DNA of 64,000 nt from Capillidium heterosporum. Lineage: Eukaryota > Entomophthoromycota > Entomophthoromycetes > Entomophthorales > Capillidiaceae. The notes under the pieces are model-generated. The model was not told the DNA's origin and searched no databases. It saw only the letters and a program-made list of their open reading frames with translations. Both the position numbers and the translations under genes were made by a program. Location of the stretch: contig WBMQ01000006.1 of the NCBI GenBank assembly GCA_016630905.1, positions 744,001 through 808,000 on the forward strand, read 5' to 3'. Of the stretch, positions 8,261 through 47,758 are shown one piece after another (within the stretch, counting starts at the first letter, position 1; each line of letters begins with the position of its first letter).

Positions 8261-9068
8261 GCATAATTGTTATAGCAATAAATGTGGTGCTATACTCGAC
8301 CATATTCTAATTATTTTTAATACTTGAAAAATCTAAGCCAACTGTCTACTTATATGATACGATGGGCCGACATATATTCCATTGGAAGGTGAAGGTACAT
8401 TGAAAAGTATAAATTTTTTCATGGTGGTACTTATATCATATCAGCTATATATCAGGACAGGTGTTTTCAAATATATTTTAGGTGATTCCCCTATTGACAA
8501 TTTCAATAGATATCTTATAGGTCTTAGGAAATGAAAATATACCTAAATCACACTTTTGAAGAACTTTACCTTGCTTGTTAAATTTATTCCAATATCGGAA
8601 ACTATCGATTTTATAACAAATTGTCTTCATCTAGATACTAGCACTGTTAAGCCTACAAACTTAATTTACTCTAAAGTATACCGTAGGTCTAGGGAATTTC
8701 TGCATTTAGCGCTGCTCTAAGGTACAATAAGACTAGTTGGATCTTGACCTAAATGCACAATGAAGTAAGTCTATTTGGTATTTTGGAAAATTCCACCAGA
8801 CTCTTGCAGCGTTGGATATCCCATCATTCCATCCACTATAAAGCTCCACAAGATTTGTGAGTGACCAGTTACTTTTTAGACTTTGGAAGCTGATTGTTCC
8901 ATAAGGACACAGTATTTTTAGGTGGATAAGTATTGCTTGGATGTTTCTAAGCTTTTCATACTATTATATCGTAAACCATCTCAGCAATAAAATTTAGTTA
9001 TATATTTGAATTTCATGCTGTTTTGTGTTTTCTCTTTTAGTAAAGATCCAATCTACTTCAACTGGTAT
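8261..9068. other. Intergenic
   Basis: AT-rich, no supported gene. Confidence 0.55.
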
Positions 9069-10420
9069 ATGTGTGCTTATAAACCAGCTGAACGATGGTA
9101 ATATTTGAAAAAGCTGATTTTACCGACTTACCTCCTACTTTTTGTCGCCACTTCAGTACTAAGGTGCTTCAAGTTGAATAATTATAGAGGTAATGACTAT
9201 AGGTACTCCAACCCAAAGAAGCAAGGATCTTACGTTGGTATTAAAGAGAACAGTACCATAAAGTTCATTGAGTATATACTCCCACCTTCTGATTACGGTC
9301 CCTACACGAGTGACTACACGCTCAACAGTATATATTGGTAGGTTTTAATTTGGCTTTGGGTTCAATATTGGTATATCTATCGATAATGCTATATGCTACT
9401 GATACTGCAAATCTCTGTATTGGGATACCATCTATGATCTAGGCAATAAATTTTCTAATCAGCTGCCTGTTTGATCTGAAATTCAACTGTCAAAGTACCA
9501 CTAAGGGCGGACTTCACTATTAGTAAGAAGGGATATGATATAGTGCTGATTCATGGTAGATTGTATTTCTTTTTATCCAGTCCCATTTTAACGAAATTTA
9601 AGGGCCACATCTTTTATCTCTATTCTTCCTAACTCACAGCTACTTAATTATAGTGAACACCAATACGATGGATTTTAAGTTGAATAATACAGATGAATTG
9701 AAACTTTTGGTACACTGCACCGTCATATCTGGTACTAAAGTATTTTGATAAAAGGATAGGATCACAATTTAGATAGTACGCTATTTTACAACCTACACGA
9801 TCAAACTTGGAACAGCATATGTACCCATGGAAAAGATCAAATGAAGTTTTTAAGCTCAAACTGATTAAAGGATGTATATATAGTATATTTTTAACAGCAA
9901 TTTCAACTATTTGATTGATCTGTCTTTTATCAACCCATTATTCAGCTTAAATTTGAGAATCTTTGAATAAAAGTATAAAGTACCAAAATTAAAGGATATC
10001 ATATATTTAGACTCTACTTTTGATCATAAGAATAGGTACTACAGCTATATCGGATGCTTAGCCAATATGGATGTTTTAAATACAATCCCTTTTCTTTATA
10101 TTCATGCTGACAACTAAAGCACTATCAAAAACCCATACTAGGTATTTTTTGCAGAAATCTATGCTATTTATAAAATCTACCCCAATAGTAAAGGTCATTA
10201 TAGTAGCTCACTCATTCCAGTTAGGACTCAAACAGAGCTACTATGGCCCAACCTTACTTTATCTACCCCCGACTTGTTAAACTTGAAGCATAATACTAGT
10301 TAAATATTTGGTCTAAACTGAAGATCAGTTATTTACAGCAAAGGCAAATACTTTCCATTATAGATTTACATCCGACCTATATAAGTTGTGAATAAAAATC
10401 GACTTGGGAAGCAACTCCAG
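9069..10420 (+). pseudogene. Decayed copy of the kelch-like membrane protein gene
   Basis: Paralogue of the intact gene at 19928-21472. It starts at an equivalent ATG (MCAYKPAERW) but has a TAA at codon 11, then reads on as LKKLILPTYLLLF, matching LKKLGLMAYFLLF of the intact protein. The matching order continues: SYVGIKENSTIKF for SCVGIKQNNTLKF; NTNTMDFKLNNT for NTNTMDFRLSRT; RTQTELLWPNLTLST for VRTELLWSNPTLST; and a frame-shifted IIDLHPT for VVDLHLAP near 10,360. Multiple stops and indels lie between. It is in the opposite orientation to the other two copies. No function expected. Confidence 0.8.
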
Positions 10421-19927: not shown

Positions 19928-21472
19928 TTAAAAAGGCTTGAAGTCTTTACTTTGATAGATATTACCCTCTGGAACTATAGTCTCATCTGAATCAGGCCCT
20001 CGATCAGTATCACTGACATCCATTACCTGCCCCTCTCGAGTCTTAGGTGCCAGATGCAAATCTACAACGGGATAAAGCTGCCTTTGTATGTAACTAATAT
20101 CACTTCGACTTAGATCGAACATTTGACTAGTGTTGAATTCCGAATTTATCAGACTGGACGTAGATAGGGTAGGATTGGACCATAACAGCTCGGTTCGAAC
20201 TTTGGTAGGAGTTGGAAAGTTAATATCATATTCCTTTCGACTGAAGTGAAAATCTATATAGAAGGAAATAGTTATAAATATAATCATAGAAATGATTATT
20301 AAAATGATGATCCCGAACGCCGTACTTGCCCCACGTATACTATAATAGTAATATTTATAATTCTGCCATACTTTAGAGCCGGCCTGAGGGAGCGGTAGTT
20401 TAGTTGCATTGAGGTGGCTCGTATTGACAGCATACCCAACAAAGCTGCCATCATTTAGCTTGCCAAATGCGTAGTACCTGTTGTAGTAATCGAAAGTAGA
20501 ACCTAAGTAAGTCATCTCCTTAAACTGCGGTATCTCGTACTTCTTCCATTCAAAGGTCTTCAAGTTCAAAGTGAATAGTGGATTTATACAAGGCAAGTTG
20601 GTTGAATAGTTGTAGTTGCTATTGAACAAGTAAACTAGATACCCCTCCTTCAACTGACTTGAGCTTAAAAGCCCACTTGGTCTTTCCCCATAGGTACTTA
20701 TGCTACCCCAAGTTTGGTTGTATAGGTCGTAAAATGGTACATTGTCTAAAGCTGCTACTTTATTTAAATCATGATCGTACCCTCCTATCAAAAATACTTT
20801 AGTATCAGATGTGACGATGCAGTGTGCTGAAAGCTTTGGTCCTTCCGTCCTGCTTAATCTAAAGTCCATCGTATTGGTGTTCAATATAGTTAGGTGACCG
20901 TGGGTTAGGAAAGTGTAGGGATAGAAGGTGTGGTCTTCGAGTTTTTCTAAAGCAGGGTTAGTTGGCAGAGGATAAATTCCACCGTGCATTATTATCACTT
21001 CATATTCTATCGTACCCGTAGTGAAGCTCGATCTTAACGGTACTTTAATAGTTGAGTTTTGAATTAGTGCGGGTAAGTGACTCGAAAATTTCCCACCTAA
21101 GTCGCAAATGTACTCATTGTATATAGGCTTATAGTATGCATAACATATAGCAGCGTCAATAGGCTTAGAAATATTAAAGTTAAAATTAAACTCAAATCTA
21201 TCGGTATACAACCTGCGAAACCTGTAGTCGCTTTGACAAGACATACTGCCTGGAGATGGAATTAGAAAATTGACGAACTTTAGGGTGTTATTCTGCTTGA
21301 TACCGACGCAAGATTCCTTACTCTTTAGACTAAAGTATCTATAACTATCAAGACTAGAATCGTTGGATATAGAAAATCTTAGTATTAGGATGATGACAAA
21401 AAGTAAGAAGTATGCCATCAAGCCCAGCTTCTTTAAAGCTTGACATCGTCTTTTCGATATATAAGTACACAT
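19928..21472 (-). CDS. Kelch-like (beta-propeller) membrane protein, intact copy
   Basis: 514 residues from the ATG at 21472 (MCTYISKRRCQALKKLG); an equivalent ATG starts the dead copy at 9069, which supports this start. A hydrophobic N-terminal segment (LMAYFLLFVIILILRF) is a signal anchor. The ectodomain carries Asn sequons and kelch-like blades: KVFLIGGYDHDLNKV followed by VPFYDLYNQTWGS, then FTLNLKTFEWKKYE and YYAFGKLNDGSFVGYAV. A second membrane helix (FGIIILIIISMIIFITISFYI, about 410-430) precedes a cytoplasmic tail of about 85 residues with acidic, Ser/Thr-rich sequence. Likely a cell-surface sensor or adhesin-like protein; ligand unknown. It belongs to a small local family with two dead copies. 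Uninterrupted reading frame and conserved ectodomain suggest it is expressed. Confidence 0.72.
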   Translation of the reverse strand: MCTYISKRRCQALKKLGLMAYFLLFVIILILRFSISNDSSLDSYRYFSLKSKESCVGIKQNNTLKFVNFLIPSPGSMSCQSDYRFRRLYTDRFEFNFNFNISKPIDAAICYAYYKPIYNEYICDLGGKFSSHLPALIQNSTIKVPLRSSFTTGTIEYEVIIMHGGIYPLPTNPALEKLEDHTFYPYTFLTHGHLTILNTNTMDFRLSRTEGPKLSAHCIVTSDTKVFLIGGYDHDLNKVAALDNVPFYDLYNQTWGSISTYGERPSGLLSSSQLKEGYLVYLFNSNYNYSTNLPCINPLFTLNLKTFEWKKYEIPQFKEMTYLGSTFDYYNRYYAFGKLNDGSFVGYAVNTSHLNATKLPLPQAGSKVWQNYKYYYYSIRGASTAFGIIILIIISMIIFITISFYIDFHFSRKEYDINFPTPTKVRTELLWSNPTLSTSSLINSEFNTSQMFDLSRSDISYIQRQLYPVVDLHLAPKTREGQVMDVSDTDRGPDSDETIVPEGNIYQSKDFKPF

Positions 21473-21911
21473 ATGTGGGTTGAAATAGCAGTTAAGGTAG
21501 ATTGCTTTGCTGTTGGTTAAAGAAAATAATGGCAAGTAGATAGAATTCAACAAATATACAAAAATAAATTCCTGAGTCCAAGATATACTTAAATACTATT
21601 ACCAGGTATATACATGATATCCAATAATATAAAAGGTTTAGAAATCTTCAAGCAGTATTACTCCTACCTAATTTATTGAGTATCTGTAAAGCAATTTGCA
21701 CAAACTCAAATGGGTAAATGATTGCTTACAGGTTTGATTAGGCTTTTCAAGACACCTTATACTCTGGTCATAAACTACTCCAACTTTGCTATTTTTGACT
21801 TAGCAAGCATGATGCTATAGGTTTTGATTAGCGTGGTATTAAATTTCAAAGATACGGTATCGAAGTATATAATTTTACAACTACATCAATTAAAATATAA
21901 TATATATCTTT

Positions 21912-35191: not shown

Positions 35192-35537
35192 GATATTAAT
35201 TAATGGGTTTCCTAGTCGGTACTAGGTATCTCCAAAGCATTTAATCGTAAAGGATAGCATCCAAGATTAATTAAGGGTACCTAAAGCACTAAAACTGCGA
35301 CATTTTCTGGGACAATGTATAATTGCAGTCTAGGTTTTTACTACCGTACAGGACATAGGTTCTAGCATTTACGTTTAGCTCTTTGTAGAAGTGAATTCTC
35401 ACAAAATATTAATTTAGAACGCTGAAACTTAATTAACCCATAGCCAGAATATATCGCCCAAAGGAAGGTTGGGCAACTGGACTCCTTGAACTTTGAAGAA
35501 AAGCAGTTAAAATCTAAATGTATGTCGGAAAATGCAT

Positions 35538-35546
35538 TATAAATAG
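35538..35546 (+). promoter_or_regulatory. TATA box of left CAP gene
   Basis: TATAAATAG 84-92 nt upstream of the ATG; present at the same distance in the right copy. Confidence 0.5.
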
Positions 35547-35629
35547 ACTGAGATTCGAAGGAAATATGCATCATCAAAACATATTTGCATTAATACTCTA
35601 ATACCTTAATTCATACTCTACCTAATACA

Positions 35630-36511
35630 ATGAAGTCCTTCACCACTTTAGTATCCTTAAGCGCCCTAGTCCTCGGATTATCCAAGATCTCCCAAGTTGA
35701 AGCCATCCCAGACTACGCCGTTACCAACAACGCCCAAAGCTACGGTACAGCAAAGCCTGCTTATGGTAATAATGACAACCACAACAACAACTACGGTGAT
35801 AACGACAATCATAGCGGTGGGTACAAGGTTAAAGTTCGCGGTGATGACAAGGACTGTGACGATGACAAGGGTGGCAAGTACAAGGGTCGCAAGCCCCATG
35901 GCTATAAGGATCACAGTCACGATCATGACCATGATTATAGCAACGATGGTGGCTACAAAGTGAACGTCAGCTACGATCCCCCTGCTAAAGTAGTCACCTA
36001 TGCAAAGACCGGTTATGGAGTTTCAGTCCCCGACAACTCCAACTACGGCAAAGCCGTCGACATCCACTACGACGGCAATGATGATGACGACGACCATCCT
36101 GAACGCTACACCAAGGCCGAGTACGGACTTGATATCACCCTCATCCTCAAACTCATCAATGACGAACGTGCCAAGCACAACGCCAAGCCACTACGTATCA
36201 ACCGTAAACTGATGTCGACCTGCAAGGAGCAGTCAGAGTACCAATCACGCTCCCGTAAGATGACCCACCTCGGCTCCGGAGGCTTAGACTTCAAGGCACG
36301 ATGTGAGAAGCAGGGGTACTACTCCAACAACGGGGCCGAGAATATCGCCTACAACCAGGATTGTGAAACTGACGTCGTCAAGGCTTGGATCAACAGCCCT
36401 GAGCATTATGCCAATATCATCAACCCCATCTTCACTGAATGTGGTGTCAGCATGAAGGACAAGTACTGGACCCAGTTGTTTGGCTGTGGCAACACCGGCA
36501 AGAAGTATTGA
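35630..36511 (+). CDS. Secreted CAP/SCP (PR-1-like) protein, left copy
   Basis: 293 residues, single exon. A signal peptide (MKSFTTLVSLSALVLGLSKISQVEA, about residues 1-25) is followed by a low-complexity Asn/Gly/His/Asp region (NNDNHNNNYGDNDNHSGGY, DHSHDHDHDYSND) that could bind metal. The CAP domain fills about residues 168-290: ILKLINDERAKHNAKPLRIN, MTHLGSGGLDF, GAENIAYNQDCETDVVKAW, NSPEHYANIINPIFTECGVS and YWTQLFGCG, i.e. the family's His/Glu pocket and the conserved helix and strand. PR-1/Pry proteins bind sterols or other lipids outside the cell and are often host- or environment-facing. It is the outer gene of an inverted duplication; the second copy encodes the same protein. Confidence 0.92.
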   Translation: MKSFTTLVSLSALVLGLSKISQVEAIPDYAVTNNAQSYGTAKPAYGNNDNHNNNYGDNDNHSGGYKVKVRGDDKDCDDDKGGKYKGRKPHGYKDHSHDHDHDYSNDGGYKVNVSYDPPAKVVTYAKTGYGVSVPDNSNYGKAVDIHYDGNDDDDDHPERYTKAEYGLDITLILKLINDERAKHNAKPLRINRKLMSTCKEQSEYQSRSRKMTHLGSGGLDFKARCEKQGYYSNNGAENIAYNQDCETDVVKAWINSPEHYANIINPIFTECGVSMKDKYWTQLFGCGNTGKKY

Positions 36512-38522
36512 TTGTTCTTTTGATGGTATTCTAATTAATAAACGTTATCTTTGTACTTTAACATGCTATTTTAAAACTGTATTTGTACCAGAGCTGTTCT
36601 ACTTCTTATTAGAGTGTATATTTAAGCTTTTAAAAGCCTTAAATAGGATGGATTTGTTTGAGATTGCCTTTCATGGACTTTTAGTATAGAATCTCATACT
36701 TTTGGCAAAGATAGTAAGCCGAGCTTGATAAGGCTTTTAAGTGTTTCCAAAAGACACATGGTATGCAAAATACAAATATATTTTTAAATTGAGCTAAGCA
36801 TATCAAAAATACCATGTAATGTTGCCTTTTCCTCTCAATTTTAATACTTATTAAGCTATATAAAACTACTATTATTAAATATGAAACATATCAATGGAGC
36901 TCACTGTTGTATCGATTGATAAAGGCAATAACATCACATCCAATTCTAAAGCCTACTCAACTTAGTATTCATATTTACTATATAAATTAAATACACGAAA
37001 ACAAAGCATATAGCAGGATCAGGTTTTCCGAAACATAATTATAGATGCAGCTACATCATCACACCTAGAAATTACCCACATGTATGTTACTGAAAATTAT
37101 GCTTAAATAAGTCCTATTAGATATTAGTTGACTTTTCATATAAACTTTGTGAAATTTATTTGATAGGTTTCTGTAAAAAACCATTTTAAATAATTGATAA
37201 GAGCCTAAATTTTATATAAAATGGTGCTTTCCTTATATATATCTCTATTTTGATAAAACTAATTTGTATTATCGGCCATTTTTAACTAACGATGCCTTTA
37301 TTACTTTTACAATGTACAAAACATTATATAAAGTAACCAACCTTGAGCAAAATAACTCAAGGTATACTGCAATATATTACGAAATATAGATATGTCCAAC
37401 GATCTAATTGTAAATCGAAAGTTGCTTTCTGTTAGGATATCGCTACTTTTAAAAAATATATATCTATTAGGAAATTTGTCAAGTCAAGCTTTATTCAGCT
37501 TATTAGGGACTATAATTTTGTATGTTAACATGGACTACTATTGCCTCTTTGCTAGAAATTTCCAACCTCTCTCAAATGAAAGTACAACTATCTGAGATAA
37601 ACTGAATGCCTTTTGTAAACTGAAAGCATCAACTCATTCAATAACTTTTAAAAATAGCTAAAGTAGCTACAAAATGGTTGGATACATCAATGGCCTTATA
37701 AATATGTAATTCCATGAATATTTTTTAATCAATTCAGAGCAAAAATCCTAAATCCCAAACTACACTTTTGAAAGTATACTATTATTTCACTAGAAATGAC
37801 ATTACATTAAACTATTCTAACCTTCAAGGTACCTATAAAATGATTTTAAGCATATTGATCTTATCTAAAACTTTTAAATTTTACGATCAAGATACTCAAG
37901 GATACTAGCTTATAAAAGCACTAATTAGTTGTATCAAGAGCTTTAGTTTCTACCTGCATAAATTTTTTAGTAGGTTAGTGTACTGTGTTCCCGATGAGGT
38001 GTTTTTGCATTCGATATAAGGTAGATGCTCATATTCAGATAAATTGACCTTACGTGCGAGTTCTATTTACCTATCAACACTTGGAAAGTCTCGTAAAACC
38101 TAAGCTGAAGTAAGGGAACTAGGTTTTCCATTTGGGTGGGGACGAAGTTCCCATTATCTGTTAGAAAAGCCCTACAATTTCATTAGCTATCGTATTATTC
38201 AGTTTGATTTGAAGAAACTAAACACTGTTAAAGCTATATTTGCTCTATGATAAGGATATAGTATACACTAACTTTAAAGTTATACCGAAATACCAAACAG
38301 AGGTAGTGCCTTGTGTATATTAAGTAGAAATAAATTTACTATTATATACCACAAAGATAAGATTCTCTATTTACCATCTACTACCCTGTATTTACATTAT
38401 GTTCCCATTCCATCATCCTATTTATTAAATGTTAAAGGTAATAAGCTATCTAAATTACTAGTACCATGCCAATATACTTGAGAAATATTTGATAACAAAG
38501 TAAATTTTACTATAGCGATTTT

Positions 38523-38546
38523 GGAACGCCCCTTTTACAATATACT
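38523..38546 (+). promoter_or_regulatory. Conserved upstream element of the expansin-like genes, left
   Basis: GGAACGCCCCTTTTACAATA sits about 176 nt upstream of the ATG. It is kept, with two changes, at 42979-43003 upstream of the other copy, although surrounding promoter sequence has diverged. Possible transcription-factor site. Confidence 0.4.
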
Positions 38547-38637
38547 ATGCAGGAATAGCGCATCATCCCACACGAATATATGTTGTATTGTAAGGGAAAT
38601 ATTTGATATCCTCATCCAAGCAGATGAGTTTAAAGTG

Positions 38638-38648
38638 TATATAAATAG
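38638..38648 (+). promoter_or_regulatory. TATA box of left expansin-like gene
   Basis: TATATAAATAG about 75-84 nt upstream of the ATG; the other copy has TATATAAGTAG in the matching place. Confidence 0.5.
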
Positions 38649-38721
38649 ACACTTCAGTACCAACATAAAGGTATACTCATCAGCACTCTACTTTAGCTTC
38701 AGTATTCTACAAAATTTTATA

Positions 38722-39390
38722 ATGGCCTCGTTCAAAAACATTGTCCAACTAACCTGTATCCTCGCACTTACCACGTCTACCGGTGTGATGGGAGCTCTAT
38801 CTGGTAACCAAGGCATATCAACCCATCACTACGAGAAGGATCTTCCCCACCTGGACACCAACCCAGTCTTCTGCGGTGTACTAGGTAGACACCTAAACAT
38901 CAACAAGATCACCGCCGTCCAAGGTTTAAGCCAGAGCCAGTGCGGTACCTGCCTTAGAGTAAACAGCAATGCCGAGCCACATAAAGTCCAGTATGTCATG
39001 GCTTTGGATCAAGGTGGTGTAGGTATAGATATTAACCATGCTTCCTTCAACGCCCTTTTCAACAATGCTGATACTGGCATCTTCGGAGCTACCTGGTCGC
39101 CAGTTGACCAGTCCTTATGTAATGGTGCCATTACCGGTGGGGATTATCCTTTCTACAAGCAACCTATCTCCCCTCCTACATATATCCCTCCTCCTTCTTC
39201 AACTTCCACTCAAGCAGTTAATCCTAAACCTACTGATCCTTACCAGAAGGAGTGTCGTAGTGATGGCATCTGGTTCTGTTTCGACGAGAACACGCTTGGC
39301 ATGTGCTCGGGTGGTCAGATGAACAAAATTGCTTGTTCGGGTGGGCTTAAGTGTAGACCTACTCAGGGTGCCGCTTACTGCAACTTTTAA
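38722..39390 (+). CDS. Secreted expansin/barwin-like protein with C-terminal Cys-rich (chitin-binding-like) domain, left copy
   Basis: 222 residues from the ATG at 38722 (an upstream in-frame extension to 38521 has no ATG). Signal peptide residues 1-27 (ILALTTSTGVMGA). The double-psi beta-barrel domain at about 45-145 has CGVLGRHLN, QCGTCLRVN, YVMALDQGGVGIDINHASFNALF and ATWSPVDQSLC, the barwin/RlpA layout with a GxDI..ASFN motif. A Pro/Ser/Thr linker (about 150-175) leads to a Cys-rich module (CRSDGIWFCFDENTLGMCSGG, IACSGGLKCRPTQGAAYC) like chitin-binding CBM19-type domains. Likely acts on or binds wall polysaccharide outside the cell. Only residue 2 differs from the right copy (Ala here, Thr there). 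Confidence 0.85.
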   Translation: MASFKNIVQLTCILALTTSTGVMGALSGNQGISTHHYEKDLPHLDTNPVFCGVLGRHLNINKITAVQGLSQSQCGTCLRVNSNAEPHKVQYVMALDQGGVGIDINHASFNALFNNADTGIFGATWSPVDQSLCNGAITGGDYPFYKQPISPPTYIPPPSSTSTQAVNPKPTDPYQKECRSDGIWFCFDENTLGMCSGGQMNKIACSGGLKCRPTQGAAYCNF

Positions 39391-39441
39391 TAAACGCTTT
39401 ATACTATTCTAAAATGCCTTCGTTATAGTTTACAATATATA
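38722..39441 (+). repeat. Inverted repeat, inner block, left copy (expansin-like CDS plus about 50 nt of 3' flank)
   Basis: Matches 42078-42797 on the opposite strand. Identity starts at the ATG (only TAATG is shared before it) and stops after TTTACAATATATA, about 50 nt past the stop codon. One substitution at codon 2 is visible. Flanks on both sides are diverged or unrelated. Confidence 0.9.
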
Positions 39442-40256
39442 TATTGACTTATCAAATATATAATGGAAAGTATTCAATGCACAATATACAAAAGGCTATA
39501 TTTGTTGAAAACAAAGTTTATTATACTAGTTTACTTAAAAATACAGCTTATTAAGCTATAGGGACCAAATCCTATATGTAGTAAGGGCGAGGGGCTCTTT
39601 GACAACAAAATACTTCACGGTATATATTGAAACAACAAGGCCACCAGTCGCTCTAAGTGTGCTAACAGTAAAATATAATACCCACCCACAAGAAAGCTAA
39701 GAGTAGTGCCTGATTTTCATCATCTAAAATGACTCCCATAGTATGCCGATGAACCAGTTAAAAAATAGCTGAATTGCTTCCAAAATTCAAATTTAAAAGA
39801 TCAAGTAGATAGAAAAAAAGAAAATGTAAGCCATGCCTCTTACCGGAATCGAACCAGTGGCCTTTCCCTTACTAGGGGAACGCTCTGCCCCTGAGCTAAA
39901 GAGGCTTTTATAAGCTTCTCAAAAATTTATCCATTTATATATTTCAAATTCCGTTGGTAATTTCTCAACTTGAGGAACTGATAGTTTGTTTTAAAGTACT
40001 GTTTGTTTAACACATTAAACTCGATATATTTGAAAAGTTTCTTACATATTTGTTAGAATAATATTCCTATAAATATACTACAGTTCTTATTCCTTGGTTA
40101 AAGTTGTAAATAACTATATATATATTTACTTCGATAGTTATATTCGAAAGAACTTAAACGAAAATAGCTCAACATTCAGAGCTGATATAAACTATAGCAT
40201 GCCATAATTTTTAATATATTTATTTATAATAAAATTTAAAGATCTATAGATATTTA
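39442..40256. other. Spacer with tRNA-Thr
   Basis: Central spacer of the inverted duplication; no counterpart in the other arm. Contains the tRNA gene only. Confidence 0.6.
39834..39905 (-). tRNA. tRNA-Thr (anticodon AGT), copy 1
   Basis: 72 nt including the discriminator A. Acceptor GCCTCTT/AAGAGGC, D arm GCTC-AGGGGCA-GAGC, anticodon stem TTCCC/GGGAA with loop CTAGTAA (anticodon AGT), T arm ACTGG-TTCGATT-CCGGT. TATAAAA lies directly upstream and a T-rich tract downstream. Identical to the gene at 47759-47830. Confidence 0.95.
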
Positions 40257-41270
40257 TCAATGTTTAACCCTCATCCCAAGTAGTTTTCGAACCTTCTGGT
40301 TGATAGGGTCATTTATGGATAAGGTGATTACGGGCGACATAACCTTATGGAACATGACTAACGAGATGCAGATGGCATCCAAGCTAGATGGTCTCGTCCT
40401 ATTAGTCACCAACTCGTAGACAATGGTACAAGTCAGCGGTAAGAATGAAAGAATGAATACCAGCGTGTACAAGATACATTTGAACGCCACATTGCGTAAA
40501 TGCTTCTTAGGTACTTTATCCTCCTCATCACAGTTGGGTTGGGAAGTTGAGACATAGGTCGAAGTCTTACCGACCAAATTGTTGTGTTCCTCCATTCGAT
40601 TAGTCTCCATTAACTGCAAAACGACCGTCTTGTATCGGCTGGTGATGGCAAAGTAAAAGTAGGTGGCGAGCAAGGCTGGAATTACCAAAGTGAAGACGGT
40701 GATCCACAAGTAGATGTGAGTTCTAAAGTCGTTGGGTTGATAAGCTAAGTAGCAGTAGGCGAACGACGGCATTATTTGAAATTCACCTGAAACGCCGATC
40801 AAGGTGGCAAAAGTGATGGTAGGTATCCAGTTCCAGTATTGGAAGATGAGGTAGCGACGATCGGACTTTTTGGTGCTGGGATTACCACAGATCTTACGGT
40901 ACCGGTAAAAAGCGATGGTTGCGGCCGATAGGAGCCAGGTGAACCCACATACCATTATCATGGCTCCTTCCAACTGACAAGTCGTGAAGTTCCAGATGAA
41001 GTAGTTGGTACCTAGCTTGATAGGATAGTAGATGAGTAGCCATAGTGCAAACGTGATATCAATTAGAACTAGCTGCAGCGTCATGAAATTGTCAGTTGTG
41101 TGCAGACTCTTGTTCTTTATGATGACTATTAAGATTAGCAAACTAGCAATTAGTGTGAAAAAGTTGGATACAATGAAGGTGATGGGGACGAAATAAGCTT
41201 CCCAGGTATAGAGTTGAGGTAAAGTGTAGTCCATGTGATCCAAGTTTATTACCTCTTCGTCCATATTCAT
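40257..41270 (-). CDS. Family-A (rhodopsin-like) G-protein-coupled receptor
   Basis: 337 residues, single exon, start ATG 41270. Seven membrane helices: FVPITFIVSNFFTLIASLLI (1), FMTLQLVLIDITFALWLLIY (2), MIMVCGFTWLLSAATIAFYR (3), ILFQ..WIPTITFATLIG (4), LWITVFTLVIPALLATYFYF (5), CILYTLVFILSFLPLTCTIV (6) and SLDAICISLVMFHKVMSPVI (7). A Cys before helix 3 (TTCQLEG) and Cys in loop 2 (AYCYLAY) can form the usual disulfide. Helix 3 ends AFYRYRKIC (DRY-like) and helix 7 ends NDPINQKVRKLL, recalling NPxxY..K/R helix 8. Ligand unknown. It sits in the centre of the inverted duplication. Rhodopsin-like receptors are abundant in some early-diverging fungi. Confidence 0.85.
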   Translation of the reverse strand: MNMDEEVINLDHMDYTLPQLYTWEAYFVPITFIVSNFFTLIASLLILIVIIKNKSLHTTDNFMTLQLVLIDITFALWLLIYYPIKLGTNYFIWNFTTCQLEGAMIMVCGFTWLLSAATIAFYRYRKICGNPSTKKSDRRYLIFQYWNWIPTITFATLIGVSGEFQIMPSFAYCYLAYQPNDFRTHIYLWITVFTLVIPALLATYFYFAITSRYKTVVLQLMETNRMEEHNNLVGKTSTYVSTSQPNCDEEDKVPKKHLRNVAFKCILYTLVFILSFLPLTCTIVYELVTNRTRPSSLDAICISLVMFHKVMSPVITLSINDPINQKVRKLLGMRVKH

Positions 41271-42077
41271 GTTGGTAGCAGTAAGTTTGTATGTTATGTT
41301 TTGGTAGGCTCGTTTGAAAATAATGAAAGGTTTAAATCACTTGGAGTGGAAATGTCAAGTTTAAATAAAAAGGTATATCAGACTTTTTCTTTATATAGGT
41401 TACGACTCTATTAAACATTGATTTACTAACCAATTATAAACATATATTTTCTTGGTGACATATTCTTATTGAATATTACCTAGTTTAAAAGTAAATTCAA
41501 AGTCGATCGGTTTGGCCTATCTAATTTCTATAGAACTTTATAAACAAATCGCTTCTAAGCGAAACAAGATACGATCGCCCAAAACGCTTAGCTCAATGAA
41601 CATGAAGGGAAGAAGAGCATAGTTCCAATAATAACTATAAGTATAGGCGAGTTAAATATTGACCTCGTACTTAGTGGAGATGAGGAGGCTTCTGAAGGCT
41701 GAATCTTTCGGAAAGACGTTGGAAAGGATCTGAGGATTTCTGGTACATCCTTATTGATATTATAGAAGGATGTGAAGACTAATATTTAAACTATACTCAT
41801 CAAACTATAGGTTCATTCAGTGATAACTCAGGAGAAATAGACTAGAGGGATCATTTTGGACTTTATAAGAGCACACATATACTAAAAGAAAGCAACATTA
41901 TTCTCAATGCTTCTAAAAATATATCTATAGCTTTAACTGGAAGTCTTATCTGAATACCTTGGAAATTTCATTATAATATATGTATTAATATAAGTACTAT
42001 ACATATTTAATCATATATGCGTGCTGAAATAATGTGGTGTAGTAATATTTAATAAAGAGATGAGGCAATTAAAGCTG
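41271..42077. other. Central spacer, right part
   Basis: GPCR promoter and the 3' flank of the right expansin-like gene. No other gene. Confidence 0.55.
41391..41397 (-). promoter_or_regulatory. TATA box of the GPCR gene
   Basis: TATATAA on the minus strand about 121 nt upstream of the ATG. Confidence 0.45.
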
Positions 42078-42797
42078 TATATATTGTAAACTATAACGAA
42101 GGCATTTTAGAATAGTATAAAGCGTTTATTAAAAGTTGCAGTAAGCGGCACCCTGAGTAGGTCTACACTTAAGCCCACCCGAACAAGCAATTTTGTTCAT
42201 CTGACCACCCGAGCACATGCCAAGCGTGTTCTCGTCGAAACAGAACCAGATGCCATCACTACGACACTCCTTCTGGTAAGGATCAGTAGGTTTAGGATTA
42301 ACTGCTTGAGTGGAAGTTGAAGAAGGAGGAGGGATATATGTAGGAGGGGAGATAGGTTGCTTGTAGAAAGGATAATCCCCACCGGTAATGGCACCATTAC
42401 ATAAGGACTGGTCAACTGGCGACCAGGTAGCTCCGAAGATGCCAGTATCAGCATTGTTGAAAAGGGCGTTGAAGGAAGCATGGTTAATATCTATACCTAC
42501 ACCACCTTGATCCAAAGCCATGACATACTGGACTTTATGTGGCTCGGCATTGCTGTTTACTCTAAGGCAGGTACCGCACTGGCTCTGGCTTAAACCTTGG
42601 ACGGCGGTGATCTTGTTGATGTTTAGGTGTCTACCTAGTACACCGCAGAAGACTGGGTTGGTGTCCAGGTGGGGAAGATCCTTCTCGTAGTGATGGGTTG
42701 ATATGCCTTGGTTACCAGATAGAGCTCCCATCACACCGGTAGACGTGGTAAGTGCGAGGATACAGGTTAGTTGGACAATGTTTTTGAACGAGGTCAT
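42078..42797 (-). repeat. Inverted repeat, inner block, right copy
   Basis: Counterpart of 38722-39441, same length, essentially identical. Confidence 0.9.
42129..42797 (-). CDS. Secreted expansin/barwin-like protein with C-terminal Cys-rich domain, right copy
   Basis: 222 residues, identical to the left copy except Thr2 for Ala2; same signal peptide, double-psi beta-barrel and Cys-rich tail. The alternative frames also translate identically to those of the left copy, so synonymous sites have not diverged either. The promoter (42798-43003) is clearly diverged from the left one while keeping a TATA box and one upstream element. Confidence 0.85.
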   Translation of the reverse strand: MTSFKNIVQLTCILALTTSTGVMGALSGNQGISTHHYEKDLPHLDTNPVFCGVLGRHLNINKITAVQGLSQSQCGTCLRVNSNAEPHKVQYVMALDQGGVGIDINHASFNALFNNADTGIFGATWSPVDQSLCNGAITGGDYPFYKQPISPPTYIPPPSSTSTQAVNPKPTDPYQKECRSDGIWFCFDENTLGMCSGGQMNKIACSGGLKCRPTQGAAYCNF

Positions 42798-42874
42798 TAG
42801 AGAAATTAGTTGAAGTATTAGAGTTTTAGAGATAAATTTTTTATAAATATACCATTAAATTGATACTTATGCAT

Positions 42875-42885
42875 CTACTTATATA
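42875..42885 (-). promoter_or_regulatory. TATA box of right expansin-like gene
   Basis: TATATAAGTAG on the minus strand about 78-88 nt upstream of the ATG. Confidence 0.5.
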
Positions 42886-42978
42886 CATTCTGAACTTATT
42901 TACTCGAGTAACAGTATCGAGTAGTTTTTATACAATGCAACACATGTTCATGTATAGTAGTGTGATATATCCGTAATA

Positions 42979-43003
42979 ATATATTGTAGAAGGGGTGTTC
43001 CAA
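42979..43003 (-). promoter_or_regulatory. Conserved upstream element of the expansin-like genes, right
   Basis: TTGGAACACCCCTTCTACAA on the minus strand about 182 nt upstream of the ATG; counterpart of 38523-38546. Confidence 0.4.
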
Positions 43004-43880
43004 GATCTGTATAGTAACTTTTGAACTACTATCAAATATGTCTTACTCATCGATATAAAATTAGTATTTGAGTGATCTTTTATCTCACTATCTTAATCAG
43101 TAAAAAGTGGAGAGAAAATCTGATGTAAAGACAAGGTAGTGGATGGTAAACAGAAATTTGTATCTTCGTGGTAGATAAGAATTAATCTATATCCACTTGA
43201 AATATGGTTTATAGTATCGTTGACCTTTCAATATAAGCCTTATATTTGGTGCAGACGAACTCCTATATTATAAAAGTATAGATTTAGCAATATTCAAGTT
43301 CTTTAAAGCGAGCTGAAATATAATACACTAAAGAAATAATAAGGTATTCCCAACCGATAGTGAGACCTTACTTTTTTAAACGGAATATCTAATTTCCTTG
43401 CCTGATCTAGCCTGGGAGAGTTTTCCAATGCAAATAAGTAAATAGAATTAACTTATAAGGTCCACTTACCGAAATACAGACATTCCAAATTGGAATGCAA
43501 AATTGCTCATAAGTAAAGCAACATACCACTCTGTTCAGAAAAGTTATGTAATTTTTTATAGGTTTTTTTATATAAATTACACAATTTTCTTAGCAGAGTA
43601 ATAATAGTTTAATAGTTGGTTTGTTTAAGCTAGATGTGGCAATACTCAAATATAGTTAGTTCTAGCCTCAGATAACTTAATAATCTTCGATGCTTGCTCG
43701 TTAGTGAGGCTTACTAAAATTTTGGTTCTGACCTGTACAAAAAATCCACTTTATGGATACTAAAAAGTTTCTGGTTTTTAATATAGTGTCCATTTATATT
43801 CAAACGATAGTATTCTTTAATAAGTATAGCACAGCAGTTAAAAATTTATACAGCGTGTCGGCTTGAATATCCTTAAGAAA

Positions 43881-44717
43881 CTCCCTATTTGTAAACTTTT
43901 TTAAAGCCAAAATATTTATTTAGAATAAAGCATAAGATGAAGAATAAATATATTCTAGATGCTTTTTAAAGCGCCTAGAGGTTGAAATGAGAAAATGGGG
44001 GACAAATCTTCCCAAATAATATTTTCGTTCCCAGGGAACAAGAAAAGGCTATCAGGTAACAAAAGATCAAGGTCTGGCCAGGATGCGATTTCTTCTGCAA
44101 GTCTACCCTTCATATATTGGGTACTAACTTTTCTCAAGTGATTGGAAAGAGACAAAAAATATTGGAAGCGATCCCAGCTGAAAGAAGCAGCAGAATCATT
44201 CCGAAGTTTATTACAAAGATTCAAAATCCACAGTTTGTAGATGGACACAAGTGTGCCTATAAAAATGGCCGCATTGAGAGATTTTAGTACTCAATGCGTC
44301 CACAATATTTCATTAAAGAACCACAAAAAGTTAGCAAAGCCAGTGGTTTGAGACTATGTAGAGAGGAGGATTGCCCACCCCCATAGCTTGTTGGGGATTG
44401 TGCATTTAAAGTATCTGTGAATTAGTGAGTCTATTGGAGCTGAACACTAAATACACTTTTTGAACTTGCTTGCTGGGTCGATGGTGCGATCTCTTGACCA
44501 AAAAGCTCCCTGGAGTAATTTCCAGAGTATGACTTTGTAGGCTGGGGACTACAATTTATGATCGATCATCTTTCATACGCTGGTGGTTATTGCCGGATTG
44601 ATGTTGACCAAAAAATTCTTGGCGCCTGATCTTGCCTGAAGTACAAGACTTGGATTCAAATTCATGTCTAAGTTCTCCTGTATCTGACCATCTCATACTG
44701 GCCTCCCTATTTGTAAA
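43881..44717 (-). mobile_element. Insertion with 15-bp target-site duplication; probable 5'-truncated non-LTR retroelement
   Basis: CTCCCTATTTGTAAA occurs at 43881-43895 and 44703-44717 and flanks 807 bp of GC-richer sequence. The left arm of the duplication has no such segment at the matching place, giving an empty site. On the minus strand the insert ends in GGCTTTAAAAAAG next to the repeat (A-rich 3' end). It carries a 97-codon end of an ORF (43955-44248) whose AAIFIGTLVSIYKLWILNLC segment faintly resembles the C-terminal region of fungal LINE-type ORFs; upstream frames are broken. Class assignment is inference. Confidence 0.55.
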
Positions 44718-45886
44718 TTTTAAAAGTATCCAACCATCTCAATCCTAAAGCTGTATCTAAATATAATTGGATATATTACTATTTGCAATTTTTCTCAGGT
44801 TATTTCAGTGTTTACTGCTAGAGTGGATGCTTTAACAAATTGAAAGAATAACGGATGGAAAACAATTATACCGTTGTTATTTAGATATATAAAATTCTAT
44901 TGAAAAGTAAAACTTATATTCACAAATAGATTGAATGGAGTTTAACTTGATGGGGTTTTCCTAATAGATATATAAAAGGTATATATTCTTTTATAAGCCT
45001 TAGTACCTCACCGAAAGCAACCTTCGACTGTCATTGGGACATAGTAATATTTTGTAATATATTGTAGTACTTGGCTATTTGCTGGAATGTTCTTTATATA
45101 TTAGTTAATCATTAAGGGCAATAAAAGTACAACTCATGATTAAATTTAGCCTATATAAAATATATGTACAATATGGACATAGTACGTGCACACTTCTTAA
45201 TCTCTTATCAATTGAGTAATTTATAAAGATCTATCAAATAAATTTCACAAAGTTTATATGAAAAGTCAACTAATATCTAATAGGACTTATTTAAGCATAA
45301 TTTTCAGTAACATACATGTGGGTAATTTCTAGGTGTGATGAGGTAGCTGCATCTATAATTATGTTTCGGAAAACCTGATCCTGCTATATGCTTTGTTTTC
45401 GTGTATTTAATTTATATAGTAAATATGAAATACTAAGTTGAGTAGGCTTTAGAATTGGATGTGATGTTATTGCCTTTATCAATCGATACAACAGTGAGCT
45501 CCATTGATATGTTTCATATTTAATAATAGTAGTTTTATATAGCTTAATAAGTATTAAAATTGAGAGGAAAAGGCAACATTACATGGTATTTTTGATATGC
45601 TTAGCTCAATTTAAAAATATATTTGTATTTTGCATACCATGTGTCTTTTGGAAACACTTAAAAGCCTTATCAAGCTCGGCTTACTATCTTTGCCAAAAGT
45701 ATGAGATTCTATACTAAAAGTCCATGAAAGGCAATCTCAAACAAATCCATCCTATTTAAGGCTTTTAAAAGCTTAAATATACACTCTAATAAGAAGTAGA
45801 ACAGCTCTGGTACAAATACAGTTTTAAAATAGCATGTTAAAGTACAAAGATAACGTTTATTAATTAGAATACCATCAAAAGAACAA
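44718..45886. other. Spacer of the right arm, part 2
   Basis: Diverged homology to 37167-37700 up to 45230, then the near-identical 3' flank of the right CAP gene. No other gene. Confidence 0.55.
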
Positions 45887-46768
45887 TCAATACTTCTTGC
45901 CGGTGTTGCCACAGCCAAACAACTGGGTCCAGTACTTGTCCTTCATGCTGACACCACATTCAGTGAAGATGGGGTTGATGATATTGGCATAATGCTCAGG
46001 GCTGTTGATCCAAGCCTTGACGACGTCAGTTTCACAATCCTGGTTGTAGGCGATATTCTCGGCCCCGTTGTTGGAGTAGTACCCCTGCTTCTCACATCGT
46101 GCCTTGAAGTCTAAGCCTCCGGAGCCGAGGTGGGTCATCTTACGGGAGCGTGATTGGTACTCTGACTGCTCCTTGCAGGTCGACATCAGTTTACGGTTGA
46201 TACGTAGTGGCTTGGCGTTGTGCTTGGCACGTTCGTCATTGATGAGTTTGAGGATGAGGGTGATATCAAGTCCGTACTCGGCCTTGGTGTAGCGTTCAGG
46301 ATGGTCGTCGTCATCATCATTGCCGTCGTAGTGGATGTCGACGGCTTTGCCGTAGTTGGAGTTGTCGGGGACTGAAACTCCATAACCGGTCTTTGCATAG
46401 GTGACTACTTTAGCAGGGGGATCGTAGCTGACGTTCACTTTGTAGCCACCATCGTTGCTATAATCATGGTCATGATCGTGACTGTGATCCTTATAGCCAT
46501 GGGGCTTGCGACCCTTGTACTTGCCACCCTTGTCATCGTCACAGTCCTTGTCATCACCGCGAACTTTAACCTTGTACCCACCGCTATGATTGTCGTTATC
46601 ACCGTAGTTGTTGTTGTGGTTGTCATTATTACCATAAGCAGGCTTTGCTGTACCGTAGCTTTGGGCGTTGTTGGTAACGGCGTAGTCTGGGATGGCTTCA
46701 ACTTGGGAGATCTTGGATAATCCGAGGACTAGGGCGCTTAAGGATACTAAAGTGGTGAAGGACTTCAT
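45887..46768 (-). CDS. Secreted CAP/SCP (PR-1-like) protein, right copy
   Basis: 293 residues, identical to the protein at 35630-36511: signal peptide, Asn/His/Asp low-complexity region, C-terminal CAP domain. 438 nt of 5' flank and about 655 nt of 3' flank are also shared, so both copies carry the same promoter, unlike the expansin-like pair. Confidence 0.92.
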   Translation of the reverse strand: MKSFTTLVSLSALVLGLSKISQVEAIPDYAVTNNAQSYGTAKPAYGNNDNHNNNYGDNDNHSGGYKVKVRGDDKDCDDDKGGKYKGRKPHGYKDHSHDHDHDYSNDGGYKVNVSYDPPAKVVTYAKTGYGVSVPDNSNYGKAVDIHYDGNDDDDDHPERYTKAEYGLDITLILKLINDERAKHNAKPLRINRKLMSTCKEQSEYQSRSRKMTHLGSGGLDFKARCEKQGYYSNNGAENIAYNQDCETDVVKAWINSPEHYANIINPIFTECGVSMKDKYWTQLFGCGNTGKKY

Positions 46769-47758
46769 TGTATTAGGTAGAGTATGAATTAAGGTATTAG
46801 AGTATTAATGCAAATATGTTTTGATGATGCATATTTCCTTCGAATCTCAGTCTATTTATAATGCATTTTCCGACATACATTTAGATTTTAACTGCTTTTC
46901 TTCAAAGTTCAAGGAGTCCAGTTGCCCAACCTTCCTTTGGGCGATATATTCTGGCTATGGGTTAATTAAGTTTCAGCGTTCTAAATTAATATTTTGTGAG
47001 AATTCACTTCTACAAAGAGCTAAACGTAAATGCTAGAACCTATGTCCTGTACGGTAGTAAAAACCTAGACTGCAATTATACATTGTCCCAGAAAATGTCG
47101 CAGTTTTAGTGCTTTAGGTACCCTTAATTAATCTTGGATGCTATCCTTTACGATTAAATGCTTTGGAGATACCTAGTACCGACTAGGAAACCCATTAATT
47201 AATATCTAAATAAGCTATCATCGCTTCAATATTTCGCCTTGTTTTATCAATTTATAATAACAAAAAAGATGATTACGCTAGAAAAATGCTAATATACCCA
47301 ACAGAGATTTAACAGTAAAAATCTCAAATTAAGCTATTTGCTGAATATAAACCTACTTTAAACTATAATTTATACTAGTTGTGATTACACCAGCATAGTA
47401 TTTAGCTCTAAATCCATTATAGACTATTGAAAATTCTTTATAAATTGATTTAAAACCTTTGAAAGCGGCCCTAAGTGTTTTCATAGGTGTTTTGTAGAAA
47501 TCCGATTTACTAGGCGTCTATACTAAGTATTAAGCTTCAAGATTCCCTATAAGCGAAATATACTCATACTGAAAATATATTGAAAAACGATTTATAACCT
47601 ATCATTTTCAAATCTTTAGATATTTAGATAAAATTGATTAAAATATAAATATTAAATTTGGATCTCATACAACAATATTAACCTGTTATTTAAATCGTTT
47701 GATATTATAGCATTTGAAAATCTATATAAATATTTATACTTTGAAAAAGAATATAAAA
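46769..47758. other. 5' flank of the right CAP gene and spacer
   Basis: The first 438 nt belong to the repeat block. Beyond 47206 it is unique AT-rich sequence, no gene until the tRNA. Confidence 0.55.
46852..46860 (-). promoter_or_regulatory. TATA box of right CAP gene
   Basis: TATAAATAG on the minus strand, 84-92 nt upstream of the ATG. Confidence 0.5.

What the first reader, a model, noticed from the sequence alone, without database searches (positions are those of the whole stretch)
35192..47206. Old inverted duplication whose secreted-protein genes have been re-homogenised
Two arms carry CAP and expansin-like genes in mirror order around a GPCR and tRNA-Thr. Spacers and one promoter are clearly diverged but alignable, while the CAP block (about 1,975 bp) and the expansin-like CDS (about 720 bp) are almost base-identical. 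That mosaic is what repeated gene conversion between palindrome arms gives (as for ampliconic palindromes), not one recent duplication. It is an unusual arrangement for two extracellular, probably interaction-facing gene families.
Basis: partly seen in the sequence, partly recalled or inferred. Interest (0 to 1): 0.75.

Follow-up and report, generated by a model that had tools for sequence, protein, structure and literature searches.

The report
Gene-converted inverted pair of secreted-protein genes
In a fungus related to Conidiobolus, two secreted-protein genes were duplicated long ago as a mirror image, and the two copies have recently been copied over one another so that the genes are identical while the DNA between them has drifted apart; fruit flies and worms show the same behaviour, and a protease gene pair elsewhere in this genome does too.

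Summary
The CAP block has 1,776 consecutive identical bases (including 438 bp upstream of the ATG), the cerato-platanin gene 716. The spacer between the genes and the cerato-platanin promoter, inside the same arms, are homologous but about 29-35% diverged. A 5'-truncated LINE with a 15-bp target-site duplication lies in arm B's spacer only; its branch of about 0.09 substitutions per site suggests the spacer was left alone for long, while the genes were overwritten very recently. Uniform age, selection alone and a wholesale misassembly are excluded; gene conversion between the arms is the best explanation. The tRNA-Thr belongs to a dispersed 12-copy family and is not part of the structure. Drosophila amylase and Hsp70 pairs and the C. 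elegans hsp-16 palindrome are close precedents: a new member of a known kind, notable for lineage and recurrence.

The parts
35192..37177 (+). Arm A, homogenised CAP block (1,776 identical bases, then a 211-bp edge with one gap and five mismatches)
35630..36511 (+). CAP (PF00188) gene, 293 aa, CDS identical to its copy in arm B
37178..38144 (.). Arm A spacer, homologous to the arm B spacer but about 29% diverged where aligned, no LINE
38145..38725 (+). Arm A cerato-platanin promoter and start, diverged (35.3% of 648 columns over 38060-38724)
38722..39390 (+). Cerato-platanin (PF07249) gene, 222 aa; the start codon and the first base of codon 2 precede the homogenised tract
38726..39441 (+). 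Arm A homogenised tract (716 bp): CDS from within codon 2 plus 51 bp after the stop codon, up to the inner end of homology
39442..42077 (.). Unique loop between the arms; holds a 7TM receptor gene (40257-41270, minus strand, PF00001) and a dispersed tRNA-Thr (39834-39905, minus strand, not part of the arms)
42078..42793 (-). Arm B homogenised tract of the cerato-platanin gene
42129..42797 (-). Cerato-platanin gene, arm B copy
42798..43369 (-). Arm B cerato-platanin promoter, diverged
43370..45219 (.). Arm B spacer, diverged, enlarged by the LINE insertion
43896..44702 (-). 5'-truncated LINE 3' end (a related copy, L001, carries zf-RVT, PF13966), target-site duplications CTCCCTATTTGTAAA at 43881-43895 and 44703-44717; arm B only
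45220..47206 (-). Arm B, homogenised CAP block
45887..46768 (-). CAP gene, arm B copy

Best explanation
An old inverted duplication of a 4.25-kb two-gene unit (CAP plus cerato-platanin) around a 2.6-kb loop has had its genes overwritten recently by non-reciprocal gene conversion between the arms. Probable route (inferred): a break or fold-back pairing in one arm is repaired by copying from the other arm of the same or the sister chromatid. Tracts spread through stretches that are still similar, stop where homology ends on the outside, and stop in the diverged or LINE-bearing spacer on the inside. Purifying selection on the coding sequence keeps the genes similar enough to re-enter conversion, while the spacer has drifted beyond pairing range. 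Result: two identical CAP genes with identical upstream regions, and two cerato-platanin genes with nearly identical proteins under separately evolving promoters. Shown: the mosaic, in-place replacement at the inner edges, relative ages, no third close copy in the searches made. Inferred: the recombination route, direction, and any benefit (dose or uniform protein).
For: Identical tracts lie in register next to homologous diverged stretches of the same arms. 0 of 1,776 and 0 of 716 differences against 35.3% in the promoter (JC about 0.48); 107 and 114 fourfold-degenerate codons without a third-base difference; the CAP tract includes 438 bp upstream and, with two differences, about 655 bp downstream of the gene. 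The LINE in arm B only, with intact target-site duplications and a terminal branch of 0.09, shows that the spacer was not exchanged since the insertion. No third close copy: next best CAP 68% and next best cerato-platanin 60% protein identity over part of the protein (DNA). In a longest-identical-run test on 81 paralogue alignments, the two segments of this pair and a tandem CAP pair on C43 are the only ones with p at or below 0.001. The inverted subtilase pair on C1 repeats the pattern.
Against: No second strain or species could be inspected, so the classic test (paralogues cluster by strain) was not run. Short-read polishing of almost identical copies could have erased a few true differences. 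Both tracts end exactly where homology ends, which conversion allows but does not predict. The assembly has redundant or very recent duplicates elsewhere (C12/C16 at 99.6%; C4 arms at 100%; C4 trypsin pair at 99.6%).
Confidence: 0.9

Rival explanations
1. The conversion of the cerato-platanin gene was mediated by a reverse-transcribed mRNA, using LINE activity, instead of by DNA from the other arm.
For: The 716-bp tract starts inside the coding sequence (codon 2) and stops 51 bp after the stop codon, where a 3' end is plausible; both copies are open frames without an intron; LINE copies that differ by as little as 0.1% exist in the genome.
Against: The right end coincides with the end of arm homology, where DNA conversion would stop anyway. 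The CAP tract contains 438 bp upstream and about 655 bp downstream of the gene, so DNA-level copying acts at this locus.
Confidence: 0.08
2. Assembly artefact: one arm, or the gene copies within it, was duplicated or overwritten by assembly or polishing.
For: The assembly holds perfect or near-perfect inverted repeats and a redundant contig elsewhere.
Against: Spacers and promoters differ at about a third of sites with transitions in excess, and only arm B has a LINE with target-site duplications; polishing does not make 30% divergence into identity. The locus is interior in a 1.68-Mb contig.
Confidence: 0.04
3. A stepwise history: an old duplication of the spacer and cerato-platanin part, and a separate recent duplication that placed the CAP block in mirror position.
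For: The outer edge of the CAP block is also the end of homology.
Against: The diverged homologous spacer adjoins the CAP block in both arms at the same point, so an insertion would have had to land exactly in register; it also leaves the identical cerato-platanin tract unexplained.
Confidence: 0.04
4. Strong selection on the sequence alone kept the genes identical.
For: Both proteins are probably functional (open frames, Pfam domains).
Against: 107 and 114 fourfold-degenerate codons show no third-base difference and about 1.1 kb of non-coding DNA around the CAP gene only two differences before the last few bases of the block.
Confidence: 0.01

Closest known systems
Drosophila amylase (Amy-p/Amy-d) palindromic pairs
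   Same: Linked inverted pair of secreted-protein genes; [quoted passage not shown] 'secreted' is recalled).
   Different: Single-gene arms, shown across species; here two genes per arm, a fungus, one genome, and the CAP tract includes its upstream region.
C. elegans / C. remanei hsp-16 four-gene palindrome and other inverted pairs
   Same: Two-gene arms in mirror order kept near-identical, gene conversion proposed (PMC1803023, abstract and passages).
   Different: In C. elegans the intergenic arms are identical too; here the spacer has diverged and only the gene blocks are homogenised.
Drosophila Hsp70Aa/Ab and Hsp70Ba/Bb
   Same: Palindromic pairs under gene conversion (PMC3924832, passages).
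   Different: Chaperones; evidence there rests on species comparison and shared silent polymorphism, not available here.
Mammalian sex-chromosome palindromes
   Same: Arm-to-arm gene conversion keeps identity above 99% (starts of the abstracts of PMC3723533 and PMC8981503 in the listing; papers not read).
   Different: Large palindromes on sex chromosomes, near-identical along the arms; here a 4-kb unit with a patchy result.

Membership tests
Inverted paralogue pairs under interlocus gene conversion | Homologous inverted arms | tested here: met
Inverted paralogue pairs under interlocus gene conversion | Identity tracts in register with more diverged homologous sequence | tested here: met
   diverged homology adjoins each tract on one side only (the inner side of CAP, the 5' side of cerato-platanin), the other side being the end of homology
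Inverted paralogue pairs under interlocus gene conversion | Duplication older than the identity of the tracts (independent clock) | tested here: met
   spacer and promoter divergence, LINE branch length
Inverted paralogue pairs under interlocus gene conversion | Paralogues within a strain or species more alike than orthologues between them, or shared polymorphism | not testable with these tools
   No second strain is held; the best match of the cerato-platanin protein in another species is 50% identical over 67% of it
Ampliconic sex-chromosome palindrome | Sex-linked or non-recombining chromosome | not testable with these tools
   No chromosome or mating-type information
Ampliconic sex-chromosome palindrome | Arms near-identical along their whole length | tested here: not met
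   Middle of the arms is about 29-35% diverged
Cerato-platanin | PF07249 above the curated cut-off | tested here: met
   27.8 bits, cut-off 24.4; residues 59-133 of 222 only; PDB sequence matches weak (best E 0.018)
CAP superfamily | PF00188 above the curated cut-off | tested here: met
   60.6 bits, cut-off 21.1

The most novel reading that the evidence does not exclude
In this fungus, inverted pairing is a recurrent way of keeping secreted-protein genes identical: several CAP, cerato-platanin, subtilase and trypsin pairs sit in mirror orientation and are continually re-homogenised at the gene while promoters and spacers diverge, giving a fixed protein at double dose with separately evolving control. 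The subtilase pair on C1 and the patchy trypsin pair on C12 would be further cases.
Probability: 0.3. Interest if true: 0.62.

Novelty: new member of a known kind. Interest (0 to 1): 0.42.

Why it matters
It is a clean natural experiment: one locus gives an identical gene pair with identical upstream regions (CAP), an almost identical gene pair with diverged promoters (cerato-platanin), and an internal clock (LINE). It warns that near-identical secreted-protein paralogues in such genomes must not be dated by their coding sequence or counted as recent expansions. If the recurrence in subtilases and trypsins holds genome-wide, inverted arrangement would be a general means of concerted evolution in early-diverging fungi.

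Tried and rejected
Recent single duplication, selection alone and wholesale misassembly were rejected (see rivals). tRNA-Thr as part of the arms was rejected: 12 matches on four contigs, asymmetrical places. A donor elsewhere in the genome was looked for and not found (only the best candidates are scored by that tool). GC-biased conversion was looked at through GC3 of the pair and three paralogues: cerato-platanin 0.49 against 0.545 and 0.56, CAP 0.64 against 0.50, so inconclusive. Direction of conversion cannot be read because the tracts have no differences to polarise. The species could not be named: best named matches are Conidiobolus coronatus (cerato-platanin, 50%) and Entomophthora muscae (AMP-dependent ligase, 43%). 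Controls without the mosaic: one direct trypsin pair on C3, 71.5% identity, longest run 24, reached in 236 of 2,000 shuffles; sugar transporters, 20 alignments of which 3 are the same place twice, 16 of the other 17 within the null and one slightly over (run 116, largest of 500 shuffles 111). Literature searches aimed at a fungal, Conidiobolus or entomophthoralean precedent: three returned no paper, and no title or start of abstract in the other listings reports such a gene pair; I did not read those papers apart from passages of two, and other listings hold fungal papers on gene conversion or structural variation (PMC10294615, PMC8150848) that I did not read. The held library lacks most subscription papers.
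Full report
WHAT IS THERE. The window lies at 744001-808000 of a 1.68-Mb contig (C41) of a 29.5-Mb, 44-contig genome. It is fungal: the nearest named relative of the cerato-platanin protein is from Conidiobolus coronatus (50% identity over 67%) and of the neighbouring AMP-dependent ligase from Entomophthora muscae (43%). Two inverted arms, 35192-39441 and 42078-47206, surround a 2.6-kb loop with a 7TM receptor gene (PF00001). Each arm carries a CAP gene (PF00188) outside and a cerato-platanin gene (PF07249) inside. Both proteins begin with a hydrophobic stretch that looks like a signal peptide; this is my reading, no predictor was run.

THE MOSAIC. Alignment of the arms shows, from outside in: no homology; 1,776 identical bases through the CAP gene and its surroundings; 211 bases with one gap and five mismatches, four of them in the last few bases; a spacer with 448 of 634 locally aligned bases identical once the LINE is cut out (16 sd over shuffles); a promoter region with 439 of 641 identical (37 sd); 716 identical bases through the cerato-platanin gene; no homology. 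The outer and inner flanks score at chance (0.7 and 0.1 sd), so the duplicated unit ends where the identical tracts end. Differences in the promoter are 147 transitions and 82 transversions over 648 columns; unrelated sequence would be expected to give about one to two (general knowledge). The cerato-platanin tract starts within codon 2, and the first base of that codon is the only coding difference in either gene pair.

RELATIVE AGES. Promoter divergence is 0.353, JC about 0.48. In arm B's spacer sits the 3' end of a LINE: 37 of 40 genome matches begin within ten bases of one another at its 3' end, while the other end varies, those at the far end being limited by the query; a related copy (L001) has a frame with a zf-RVT domain (PF13966, 28.7 bits, cut-off 27.5); a 15-bp target-site duplication flanks the insertion. 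In a tree with the eight copies cut out as loci its terminal branch is 0.09; its sister L008 has 0.05 and the other seven 0 to 0.02. That branch is an upper bound on insertion age, because it may include changes before insertion. The gene tracts have 0 of 1,776 and 0 of 716 differences, which by the rule of three limits their divergence to about 0.0017 and 0.0042. On these figures the last exchange of the CAP block is below about half a per cent of the age of the duplication, and the spacer has not been exchanged since the LINE came in.

NO THIRD DONOR. Protein searches of the genome found 11 cerato-platanin matches (the two arms, then 60% and 51% identity on contig C6) and 20 CAP matches (the two arms, then 68% on C2); DNA searches found only the two arms at high identity apart from the tRNA. 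The best CAP and cerato-platanin matches elsewhere lie on different contigs.

IS IT SPECIAL IN THIS GENOME? I ran a longest-identical-run test with shuffled mismatches on 81 alignments (250 bp or more, E up to 1e-15, identity up to 98%) among 26 of the 31 CAP and cerato-platanin loci and the window; five loci were left out because they repeat the window or another locus, pairs above 98% (such as L018/L019 and L026/L027) were left out by the identity limit, and some rows repeat each other because loci overlap. Five rows had p at or below 0.001: the two segments of this pair, and three rows of a tandem CAP pair on C43, two of them the same stretch; all others had p of 0.02 or more. The C43 pair has a 129-bp identical tract in a background of 172 differences in 780 columns (0 of 20,000 shuffles). 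Of four family searches, two (subtilases and trypsins) showed inverted pairs with equal or nearly equal scores. The subtilase pair on C1 (133219-134982 and 149961-151724, inverted, 15 kb apart) has 2 differences in 1,764 bp inside homologous flanks on both sides (123 of 167 and 387 of 541 identical; 21 and 67 sd). The trypsin pair on C12 is patchy, 160 differences in 1,562 columns with a 154-bp run (0 of 5,000 shuffles) and no homology in the short flanks seen. The trypsin pair on C4 is 99.6% identical throughout the 1.8 kb seen and says nothing about conversion. One direct trypsin pair and 16 of 17 informative sugar-transporter alignments show no mosaic; one transporter pair is slightly over the null. 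Thus conversion between paralogues recurs here, but I cannot say that inverted pairs are favoured: a partial coordinate survey showed no clear excess.

HOW IT PROBABLY WORKS. Replacement in register, with homologous but diverged sequence continuing at the inner edges, is what gene conversion leaves. The inferred route is repair of a break in one arm by copying from the other, on the same or the sister chromatid. Drift in the spacer and the LINE make the middle a barrier; coding constraint keeps the genes similar enough to be used again. For the CAP gene 438 bp of upstream sequence is included and both copies should be controlled alike; for the cerato-platanin gene the promoter is excluded. The two cerato-platanin promoters still share a 22-base element with two variable positions (38523-38544 and 42980-43001; no other match within 3 mismatches in the window, expected 0.01 by chance), so they may share part of their control; the pattern was taken from that same pair.

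COMPARISON. Drosophila amylase pairs are palindromic and show concerted evolution of coding sequence with independent flanks; Hsp70 pairs are palindromic too (PMC3924832, passages). The C. elegans hsp-16 locus has two-gene arms (PMC1803023, abstract and passages). The present case works like these. The across-species test that supports them best could not be run here. In the paper on E. muscae and allied genomes the words 'gene conversion' do not occur in the main text (PMC11105155, find); of a 2025 C. coronatus genome paper I saw passages only (PMC12387763).

VERDICT. The phenomenon is known in kind.

Noticed in passing
G000:C1:133000-135600 (L074) and C1:149350-151950 (L075): Inverted subtilase pair with the same mosaic: 1,764 bp with 2 differences inside homologous flanks 26-29% diverged; a further subtilase match lies on the inner side in both arms (C1:136044, a weak fragment, and C1:148577).
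   Followed up: partly
G000:C43:303371-309257 (L030, L033): Tandem CAP pair with a 129-bp identical tract in a 22% diverged background.
   Followed up: yes
G000:C4:73361-80000 and C4:108861-115500 (L052, L053): Inverted repeat identical over all 6,640 bp seen, extent unknown; recent duplication, palindrome or assembly artefact.
   Followed up: partly
G000:C12:2544663-2548046 and C16:31603-34986 (L026, L027): 99.6% identical stretch on a large and a 64-kb contig, probably a redundant contig or second haplotype.
   Followed up: no
window 38523-38544 and 42980-43001: 22-base element shared by the two diverged cerato-platanin promoters, a candidate regulatory site.
   Followed up: partly
window 8980-10042 and 20471-21576: Another inverted pair (one side in a kelch-like ORF, below the Pfam cut-off) at about 65% identity with no unusually long identical run: an internal control without homogenisation.
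   Followed up: partly
window 40257-41270 and 24 genome matches: Rhodopsin-type 7TM receptors occur as a family (20 of 24 matches over the cut-off) with local clusters on C3, C42 and C44 in this fungus.
   Followed up: no
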